Positions 640 through 39,440 of a stretch of 39,440 nucleotides of DNA are shown here, piece after piece; within the stretch, counting starts at the first letter, position 1, and the number at the start of each line of letters is the position of its first letter. Source of the stretch: Pseudomonadota bacterium (GTDB lineage: Bacteria; Myxococcota; Myxococcia; Myxococcales; JAKAPL01); NCBI GenBank assembly GCA_027451705.1, contig DAIDIT010000230.1, forward strand, positions 1-39,440. Reading direction: 5' to 3'. The notes under the pieces are model-generated. The model worked only from the letters and a program-made list of their open reading frames with translations. It made no database searches and was not told the DNA's origin. The position numbers and the translations under genes are program-made.

Positions 640-868
640 CGCCAACTGGCGGATTTAGCGGCAACGAGCCGCCCATCTGGAGGCTACAGTAGAAGCCCGC
701 CTCGACGATGCCCGGCCGCCGCGTCCCAGCGCGGTGGTGAGCGGAGCGCGAAGAGCAGGTGGTAGGCGAAGCGGCGCTGCGCTGGCGTGATGCCCGGCGC
801 GGGGTACTCCGGCTCGTCATCGATGAGCGAGCTTGCTTGGTTCTCCGAATGCGCAGTGGCGGGCGGTC
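640..868 (-). pseudogene. possible decayed coding remnant
   Basis: On the - strand a short frame reads SSLIDDEPEYPAPGITPAQ and then RRFAYHLLFALRSPP, with nearly all third codon positions G or C, like true genes here. At about position 720 the reading quality moves to another frame (GIVEAGFYCSLQMGGS), which suggests a frameshift. No ribosome site or intact start is evident. I do not recognise the family. The rest of 434-986 shows nothing I can support. Confidence 0.25.
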
Positions 869-2098
869 CTTGGGCGAGCGCACCATGCCCGCGCGCACCA
901 CTCCGGCGAGGCGCGTAAAGCCGCGGACCAAGTTTGCGGTGCACTCCCCCGGGGTGGTGGAGAATCCACTAGGGGTACACAGCCCCTGCCCGGCGACGTG
1001 CGCAGTGTGCCCCGCGATGCAAGGCCAATGGCCTGGAATCACGAGGAGATGTCCCGCGACGTCACGGCGCTGCCCCGCATGCTCGCCGCGTCGACCTGCC
1101 GGGGACCATGGTTGCCCCGCGGCGCGCCATGGACCGCGGGCGACTGTACCCCGGTGCCCCGCCGCGCGCGCCCGACGCCCCGCGACGTGACCGGGCTGCC
1201 CCGGCGGGATCGCCCGGCGACGCCGCTCGCGTCCCGGGTGCCCCGCGACGTGACCGGGCTGCCCCTCCAACGTACCGACCTGCCCCGGCAATGTACCCAG
1301 GTGCCCCGCGACGTGTCCGGGCTGCCCCGGCGTGTGATGGGAATGCCCCGCGGTGCGAACTGGGTGGCCGCCCGACGGACCTTTCTGGCCCGGCCGGCTA
1401 CCCAGGTGCCCCGCGCGATCACGATCCTGCCCCATCCTGCTGCGCTGCTGCCCCAGCGCGTCACCGAACTGCCCCGCTGCACCGCCCGACTGCCCCGCGA
1501 TGCAGTCGGGTTGCCCCGCCTCGCAAGCAAGCTGCCCTCCCAGGGCACCTGGCTGCCCCGGCCTTGGACCCAGGCGCCCCGCGCCGCGACCCTGCCGCCC
1601 CGGCGCGCGATACGAACGCCCCGCGACGCGAGAGAGCTGCCCCGCCGGCGTACCTTCCCGCCCCGGCGATGCACCCAGGTGCGCAGCCCGATCACCGTCC
1701 TGCCCCGCGACGCCACGTCACCGCCCCAGCGTGTCACCGGGCCGCCCCGCGGCGCCGTCTCACCGCTCCGCGATGCGGTCGAGCCGCCCCGCCTCGCGAG
1801 CGAACTGCCCCTTCAATGTACCCGTGAGCCCCGGCTTCGTACCACAATGCCCGGCGGAGTTGCCGAGCAGCCCCGCCGCGCATCTGCGGTGACCCGACGT
1901 GGAGCCCAGGTGCTCCGCCGCGCCATCGGGTCACTCGAGCCCGCGTTCGACCGGCCCCGTAACTCTGTCGGGATGCCCCGCGACGGCCTCCCGCGGCCCC
2001 AGGTCGCAGCGAAGCTGACCCCCGAGGACACTGCGCTGGCCCGGCCTGCAAGGACGCCGGCCCGCGGCGTGAGAGCGCTGCCCCGGAGTCCTCCCTGA
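833..2098 (+). CDS. hypothetical heptapeptide-repeat ORF spanning the 21-bp array; translation doubtful
   Basis: A 421-codon frame opens with TTG at 833 and its stop (2096-2098) falls inside the last unit of the 21-bp array, so the array is open from end to end in this frame. The product would be a heptapeptide repeat of the form L-P-R-x-x-x-x (for example LPRDVTG, LPRCTAR, LPRDAVG), very rich in Pro and Arg. Against translation: there is no ribosome site before the TTG, two other frames and the opposite strand are also widely open, and the repeat proline is written CCC in essentially every unit although CCG is common in neighbouring genes. The invariance looks like constraint on DNA rather than on protein. 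I list it because an exact match of stop and array end is hard to ignore. Confidence 0.2.
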   Translation: MLGSPNAQWRAVLGRAHHARAHHSGEARKAADQVCGALPRGGGESTRGTQPLPGDVRSVPRDARPMAWNHEEMSRDVTALPRMLAASTCRGPWLPRGAPWTAGDCTPVPRRARPTPRDVTGLPRRDRPATPLASRVPRDVTGLPLQRTDLPRQCTQVPRDVSGLPRRVMGMPRGANWVAARRTFLARPATQVPRAITILPHPAALLPQRVTELPRCTARLPRDAVGLPRLASKLPSQGTWLPRPWTQAPRAATLPPRRAIRTPRDARELPRRRTFPPRRCTQVRSPITVLPRDATSPPQRVTGPPRGAVSPLRDAVEPPRLASELPLQCTREPRLRTTMPGGVAEQPRRASAVTRRGAQVLRRAIGSLEPAFDRPRNSVGMPRDGLPRPQVAAKLTPEDTALARPARTPARGVRALPRSPP

Positions 2099-2099
2099 C
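987..2099 (+). repeat. 53-unit tandem array, strict 21-bp period
   Basis: The core TGCCCCG recurs every 21 bases, for example at 987, 1008, 1071, 1113, 1155, 1197, 1239, 1281, 1302, 1323, 1344, 1407, 1428, 1449, 1470, 1491, 1512, 1554, 1638, 1701, 1974 and 2079. All these positions differ by exact multiples of 21, so no indel has broken register over 1.1 kb. The first seven bases are best conserved (the leading T is often C); the remainder is degenerate around GCGACGTGACCGGGC. Some units recur at longer range: the CGTACC-to-CCCAGG stretch at 1271 returns at 1649, 378 bases or 18 units later. A few units (1092, 1134, 1218, 1932) have lost the core. A period of 21 bp is two helical turns, placing every core on one DNA face. 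Confidence 0.9.
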
Positions 2100-2297
2100 C
2101 GCCCGAGGAACCACGGACGCTGCTCTTGGTTGCGACCGTGGCAACGTCGAACCTGGCGGGAAGGGACTCGCGGATGACCGCCGTCTCGACGGGAGCGAGC
2201 GAGATGGCCAGGCCGGCGGGGCGGCCGTTGAGTCGGGCGGCTCTTCGCGGCAACGCCAGCGTTGACGCGAATCCAGCGTGAGTCCAGACGGAGTTTA

Positions 2298-2460
2298 GTT
2301 TCCCGTGCGGCGTCGCGGTCGACGCCACGGGCAACGTCACCACGCTCGCCGGCAACGGCACGGCCGGCTACGTGGACCCTTCGCCGTCGCGGCCGACGGC
2401 AGCGGCAACGGCTACGTCGCGGACACGAGCAATCACCGCATCCGCGTCTTCCGCCGGTGA
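2298..2460 (+). pseudogene. NHL-repeat protein remnant, frameshifted
   Basis: One frame from about 2298 reads FPCGVAVDATGNV then TTLAGNGTAGYVD, the standard NHL beta-propeller signature. Near 2380 the frame breaks, and a second frame reads FAVAADGSGNGYVADTSNHR then IRVFRR and a stop at 2458-2460. The NHL hallmarks (GVAVD..GN, TLAG.GTAG, YVAD..NHRI) are unmistakable, but a unit is missing in the middle and there is no start. The stretch 2100-2297 upstream has faint similar traces (a GLADD-like stretch) but nothing I would call. NHL propellers in this kind of genome are usually secreted or surface proteins; this one is dead. Confidence 0.6.
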
Positions 2461-39275: not shown

Positions 39276-39440
39276 GCGGAGGCGGACGGCTTTGCCGGCC
39301 GACGGGCGGAGGCCGACGGAGGAGGCCGAAGCATCGGAGCGGAGGCGGACGGCTTTGCCGGCCGACGGGCGGAGGCCGACGGAGGAGGCCGAAGCATCGG
39401 AGCGGAGGCGGACGGCTTTGCCGGCCGACGGGCGGAGGCC
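39276..39440. repeat. 63-bp tandem repeat running off the right edge
   Basis: GCGGAGGCGGACGGCTTTGC begins at 39276, 39339 and 39402, exactly 63 bases apart, and the copies visible are identical across the repeated part. The window ends in the third copy. On the + strand one frame is an open 21-residue repeat (RRTALPADGRRPTEEAEASE). With no start seen it may be intergenic satellite DNA or the edge of a repetitive gene. The gap 39224-39275 shows nothing else. Confidence 0.85.

What the first reader, a model, noticed from the sequence alone, without database searches (positions are those of the whole stretch)
987..2099. 53-unit DNA array in perfect 21-bp register with an invariant GCCCCG core
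Seen directly: cores at 987+21n from n=0 to n=52 without one indel, although the 14 bases between cores have diverged strongly. Loss of sequence identity without loss of spacing implies selection on spacing. Two explanations compete: a helically phased protein-binding array (all cores on one DNA face, as for a centromere-like, nucleoid or decoy site), or a heptapeptide-repeat protein (L-P-R-x4) whose stop falls in the last unit. The repeat proline is always CCC while CCG is common in nearby genes, which favours the DNA explanation. I know of no described element of this form.
Basis: partly seen in the sequence, partly recalled or inferred. Interest (0 to 1): 0.78.

Follow-up and report, generated by a model that had tools for sequence, protein, structure and literature searches.

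The report
Family-wide 21-bp phased intergenic DNA arrays
A little-studied family of Myxococcales bacteria carries many non-coding DNA arrays that repeat every 21 base pairs (two turns of the double helix); their letters drift but their spacing hardly changes, which suggests that the spacing itself is kept for a reason still unknown.

Summary
The array is real: about 50 units of 21 bp, window 987 to about 2020 and, more weakly, to 2099. The core is not invariant: 29 of 53 units hold GCCCCG exactly, all 29 at 988+21n, none out of register. It is not a heptapeptide gene: a 77%-identical copy elsewhere in the genome has four stops in the LPR frame, dN/dS is 1.0, and no frame is open in both copies.

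Across 1,009 bp the two copies differ by 233 substitutions and no indel, while a flank shared with another copy has 5 indels per 29 substitutions. The core diverges half as fast as the spacers.

The array is not isolated. Intergenic 21-bp arrays, mostly of unrelated unit sequence, occur in all three genomes of this family examined (4-18 seen per sample; 12-32 arrays per Mb) and were absent from samples of eight other Myxococcales families. In 38 arrays, 695 of 700 unit spacings are exactly 21. Arrays are missing at orthologous loci, so they turn over quickly.

Best reading: dispersed non-coding repeats under a DNA-level constraint on helical phase, probably scaffolds for a phased nucleoprotein (inferred). 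Chief rival: a MITE-type minisatellite like BrickBuilt, its spacing kept by its amplification.

The parts
987..2020 (.). main 21-bp phased array, core GCCCCG at 988+21n, about 49 units
   Evidence: ungapped homology to C266
2021..2099 (.). weaker terminal units, less constrained (C266 has a 1-bp slip and an extra stretch of about one unit near here; C90 diverges from about 2020)
1280..1810 (.). higher-order duplication inside the array: period 273 bp (13 units), 1.9 copies, 73% match, no indel
899..986 (.). left flank ('leader') shared with the copies on C266 and C172
2100..2217 (.). right flank ('tail') shared with the copy on C266
689..898 (-). remnant of the C-terminal part of a REP-associated tyrosine transposase gene (frameshifted); its homology stops at 898, where homology to C266 begins
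   Evidence: intact relatives match NF047646 and PF01797
2479..3774 (-). right neighbour: outer membrane efflux protein (OEP), followed by an AcrB/AcrD/AcrF transporter gene; not part of the element
   Evidence: its orthologues in G001 and G002 have no adjacent array

Best explanation
The array belongs to a class of intergenic, non-coding, dispersed DNA repeats found in all three sampled genomes of this Myxococcales family. Shown by sequence: units recur at exactly 21 bp; the spacing persists through large substitution loads and with different unit sequences; arrays change by whole units; whole arrays are copied to other sites; the window array is not a protein gene. Inferred: 21 bp is two helical turns at 10.5 bp per turn, so every unit presents the same DNA face, and the arrays serve as phased scaffolds for a DNA-binding protein or nucleoprotein filament of low sequence specificity (a chromosome-organising, anchoring or titrating role). 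Selection then removes insertions and deletions that break the phase, while base changes outside a short preferred core are tolerated. Single sites are dispensable, so arrays come and go between species.
For: Zero indels with 233 substitutions between the window array and C266, against 5 indels with 29 substitutions in the window-C172 flank, p = 2.6e-5. Core columns diverge 13.2% against 27.1% elsewhere, p = 1.4e-6, also at G/C sites alone. 695 of 700 spacings are 21 in 38 arrays with 4,221 differences from consensus. Array pairs: 1,010 mismatches and 6 non-21 gaps; non-array repeats in the same-genus genome: 263 mismatches and 104 gaps (66 substitutions and 20 indels as distinct events). 27 of 50 intergenic short-period arrays in the family have period 21, none 20 or 22; no intergenic 21-bp array in samples of eight other families. 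Coding excluded for the window array.
Against: No binding protein is identified. Predicted curvature, 10-11-bp sub-periodicity and dyad symmetry show no signal. Most arrays share no motif, and only the window array shows even a marginally concentrated core. Array positions are not conserved between species. Most periods seen are multiples of 3, so a coding origin of some arrays cannot be excluded.
Confidence: 0.5

Rival explanations
1. The arrays are the variable cargo of dispersing, non-autonomous mobile elements (a minisatellite carried by a MITE-like element, as in BrickBuilt of Porphyromonas gingivalis). They spread through intergenic DNA, and their 21-bp spacing is kept by the amplification or copying machinery rather than by any use to the host.
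For: Copies of the window array at four sites in one genome; the unit 899-2217 abuts a broken transposase gene at 898; one G001 array type lies on at least seven contigs; several G001 arrays touch or lie near an abundant repeat with inverted ends or the end of a repeated sequence at contig ends; sites are not conserved; BrickBuilt precedent (PMC4596501).
Against: No terminal inverted repeats bracket the window array. The repeat near G001 arrays is common (59 hits in 620 kb), so closeness may be chance. Window and C266 keep unit-by-unit correspondence over 48 units, so copying alone does not explain the lack of indels after 23% divergence.
Confidence: 0.3
2. Ordinary neutral minisatellites produced by replication slippage, with no constraint on spacing.
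For: Whole-unit copy-number changes (C90 lacks 13 units; gaps of 21 and 42 between G001 arrays); arrays absent at orthologous loci.
Against: Indels are far rarer than in flanks and in non-coding repeats of a same-genus genome. One length dominates across mostly unrelated sequences. No isolated 21-bp duplications were found that would mark a slippage preference for 21.
Confidence: 0.1
3. A heptapeptide-repeat (LPR-x4) protein encoded at 833-2098.
For: A 421-codon open frame in the window copy; 21 bp is seven codons.
Against: Four stops in the same frame of C266, dN/dS 1.01, no third-position bias; no Pfam match; no coding signal to the gene caller.
Confidence: 0.03
4. REP-type palindromic repeats or RNA hairpins moved by the associated tyrosine transposase.
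For: Transposase remnant beside the array; a few arrays have units with good dyad symmetry (L082, L099); slight excess of self-folding (mean z -0.56, SE 0.21).
Against: No significant dyad symmetry overall (combined p 0.09) and no arm covariation (mean z -0.29); Rfam gives no family above its threshold.
Confidence: 0.04

Closest known systems
BrickBuilt, a minisatellite-bearing MITE of Porphyromonas gingivalis (PMC4596501)
   Same: Intergenic, dispersed, tandem direct repeats of about two helical turns (23 nt) without spacers, with leader and tail segments
   Different: Here no bracketing inverted repeats were found, the period is 21, many unrelated unit sequences share that period, and units diverge strongly while spacing holds
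Plasmid iterons (recalled, not tested against a library)
   Same: Tandem direct repeats of roughly 20 bp, spaced by about two helical turns
   Different: No replication initiator gene is linked to the array here, there are many arrays per chromosome, and their sequences are unrelated
Partition (centromere-like) repeat arrays such as plasmid parC (recalled)
   Same: Phased direct repeats that load a DNA-binding protein
   Different: No partition gene pair was found beside the array; many scattered sites with high turnover
REP elements with their tyrosine transposase
   Same: Intergenic, dispersed; a REP-type transposase remnant adjoins the array
   Different: No conserved palindrome in the unit
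Bacterial VNTR minisatellites
   Same: Tandem arrays that change by whole units
   Different: One period dominates across unrelated arrays and non-unit indels are nearly absent

Membership tests
Heptapeptide-repeat protein gene | Reading frame conserved and under purifying selection between copies | tested here: not met
   four stops in C266, dN/dS 1.01
BrickBuilt-type MITE minisatellite | Tandem direct repeats without spacers, intergenic, many dispersed copies | tested here: met
BrickBuilt-type MITE minisatellite | Terminal inverted repeats bracketing the array | tested here: not met
   no convincing inverted pair brackets the window array
BrickBuilt-type MITE minisatellite | Target-site duplications | not tested
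   exact ends are not defined for enough copies
REP element | Conserved palindromic unit | tested here: not met
REP element | Associated REP-type tyrosine transposase | tested here: inconclusive
   a broken remnant adjoins the array in the window and in C172, but not in C266
Plasmid iteron origin | Linked replication initiator gene | tested here: inconclusive
   none among the eight neighbouring frames scanned with Pfam; the whole window was not annotated
Helically phased protein-binding array | Unit spacing conserved beyond sequence | tested here: met
Helically phased protein-binding array | A protein binds it in phase | not testable with these tools
   needs pull-down or footprinting

The most novel reading that the evidence does not exclude
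A bacterial family uses many scattered intergenic arrays (tens to about a hundred per genome, extrapolated from samples) as sequence-tolerant scaffolds spaced at two helical turns for a chromosome-organising protein: a spacing code rather than a sequence code.
Probability: 0.3. Interest if true: 0.9.

Novelty: new variant of a known kind. Interest (0 to 1): 0.68.

Why it matters
Selection on spacing without selection on most of the sequence can rarely be shown in non-coding bacterial DNA. This family offers dozens of arrays in which it can be tested, and the question whether 21 bp reflects helical phase or amplification mechanics becomes a simple experiment (21 against 20 or 22 bp). It also warns that long open frames over such arrays can be mistaken for repeat proteins.

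Tried and rejected
Heptapeptide gene: rejected. Hairpin/REP: not supported. Intrinsic curvature by a dinucleotide wedge model and 10-11-bp sub-periodicity: no signal. A core motif shared across arrays: GCCCCGCGA recurs in several arrays, but most of those were fetched with that pattern, so the sharing is largely a selection artefact; no consistently concentrated core elsewhere. The TIGR04563 ribbon-helix-helix protein as a dedicated binder (its gene adjoins the C79 array): present in all seven Myxococcales genomes tested, so not array-specific. A general generator of 21-bp duplications: no isolated 21-bp duplications found. The one genome-contig scan hit 21-bp repeats in two Streptomyces, a Gordonia and a planctomycete; not followed further and taken as unrelated. 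Literature searches found no description of such arrays.

Full report
WHAT WAS CHECKED. The window is contig C230 of a draft genome (3.59 Mb, 267 contigs, 70% complete). Two relatives in its order have genome lengths (5,013,479 and 4,350,553 bp) that I remember as those of Anaeromyxobacter dehalogenans and Vulgatibacter, so I call the order Myxococcales; this rests on memory. The window's own family (f1) also holds G001 (same genus) and G002 (same family).

THE ARRAY. Units run at 21 bp from 987. GCCCCG occurs 29 times inside 987-2099, every time at 988+21n, against at most 3 in one register in shuffles. A path search that allows register shifts finds 52 units and 51 spacings, all 21. The core is not invariant: 24 of 53 units deviate, some completely. 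A 273-bp segment (13 units) is present nearly twice at 73% identity without indels.

COPIES IN THE SAME GENOME. The array has a nearly full-length homologue on C266 (77%) and partial ones on C90 (93%) and C172 (96%), both cut by contig ends. C90 passes from unit 33 straight to unit 47, a difference of exactly 13 units. Homology between window and C266 covers 898-2217. Position 898 is also where a truncated REP-associated tyrosine transposase gene ends on the left (689-898, minus strand), so about 899-2217 behaves as one dispersed unit. The window and C172 share the transposase remnant; no remnant was found beside the C266 copy.

NOT A PROTEIN. In the LPR frame C266 has four stops, substitutions are spread 70/89/77 over the codon positions, and dN/dS is 1.01; no other frame is open in both copies.

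SPACING IS CONSTRAINED. Window and C266 differ at 233 of 1,009 aligned array positions with no gap; the window-C172 flank has 29 substitutions and 5 gaps, Fisher p = 2.6e-5. The six core columns diverge 13.2% against 27.1% elsewhere, p = 1.4e-6, and the difference holds at G/C sites alone. Just past 1995 C266 shows a 1-bp slip, so the right end is less constrained.

IT IS A FAMILY-WIDE PHENOMENON. I sampled 1.24 Mb from the three f1 genomes and 0.73 Mb from eight other families of the order. Period 21 is the commonest short period in G001 and G002 and second to 15 in G000 (17, 32 and 12 arrays per Mb in G000, G001 and G002). By my gene caller 27 of 50 intergenic short-period arrays in f1 have period 21, with none at 20 or 22; the other families gave no intergenic 21-bp array and two genic ones. 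Unit sequences mostly differ between arrays, though some form dispersed sets: one G001 type lies on at least seven contigs, and matches to it occur only in G001, G002 and G000 among 60 genomes, apart from one weak hit in G052. Higher-order periods of 42, 63 and 84 bp are common. Across 38 arrays (two of them genic; several chosen by motif or homology rather than by sampling) 695 of 700 spacings are 21, three are 42 or 63 and two are 22, with 4,221 differences from consensus. Pairs of homologous arrays show 1,010 mismatches, 2 gaps that are multiples of 21 and 6 others, 4 of which come from one doubtful 72% alignment. Copies of an abundant non-array element in G001 show 263 mismatches and 104 gaps, or 66 substitutions and 20 indels counted as distinct events. 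These comparisons are not independent, so the p-value printed there is nominal.

TURNOVER. The OEP orthologues of G001 and G002 have no array beside them. A dusB homologue has an array upstream in G002 but not in G001; a mutS2 homologue has one downstream in G001 but not in G000 or G002 (gene names are mine, from the translated sequences). Array sites are therefore not conserved.

WHAT THE UNITS DO NOT SHOW. No excess of intrinsic curvature and no 10-11-bp sub-period, no significant dyad symmetry or arm covariation, no Rfam family above its threshold, no consistent codon signal. A small excess of self-folding (mean z -0.56, SE 0.21) is noted without weight. A concentrated core reaches p = 0.045 only in the window array among 19 tests, so it is marginal there and absent elsewhere.

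INTERPRETATION. Exactly 21 bp is two helical turns. Spacing that outlasts sequence, in many arrays of unrelated sequence, is what one expects if units must lie on one face of the DNA, and I take a phased nucleoprotein scaffold as the likeliest use (inferred; about 0.5). The strongest rival is that the arrays are cargo of dispersing elements, like the 23-nt minisatellite of the BrickBuilt MITE (PMC4596501), with spacing kept by the copying process. The transposase remnant, the copies and the non-conserved positions favour it; the lack of inverted ends and the unit-by-unit correspondence between window and C266 speak against it. Iterons and centromere-like arrays are functional analogies recalled from general knowledge, not memberships.

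LIMITS. The f1 genomes are drafts, and many G001 arrays touch contig ends, so densities are probably lower bounds. Arrays were found by their regularity. The gene caller is rough and was trained on f1 codon usage. Only parts of each genome were sampled, the other families lightly, and the family is represented by three genomes.

Noticed in passing
window 2280-2460: The sequence reads like a degraded NHL-repeat gene fragment (by eye from the sequence; not searched against a library).
   Followed up: no
window 39276-39440: Perfect 63-bp tandem repeat (2.6 copies, 100% match) at the contig's right end; 63 is three times 21, so it may be another array of the same class.
   Followed up: no
L102, L100, L203 and others (G001): A very abundant interspersed element of about 140-230 bp with inverted ends (59 hits in 620 kb), some copies directly beside 21-bp arrays.
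   Followed up: partly
L117:1-126, L110 end, L204 end, L205 start (G001): An identical 125-126-bp sequence at the ends of about ten contigs, probably the end of a repeated insertion element, in three cases directly next to a 21-bp array.
   Followed up: partly
L099:4760-5023 (G001), L136 and L137 starts (G002): An 85-bp tandem repeat, apparently 21+21+21+22, of very similar sequence in two genera.
   Followed up: no
L020:834-919 (G034), L021:767-935 (G013): Short tandem repeats containing CTGGTGCCGGAGTCAG lie directly upstream of REP-associated transposase genes.
   Followed up: no
L017:1-201 (G000 contig C79): A young array with unit TTGCCCCGCGACGGGAGGTGG begins within about 30 bp after the stop codon of a TIGR04563 ribbon-helix-helix gene.
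   Followed up: partly
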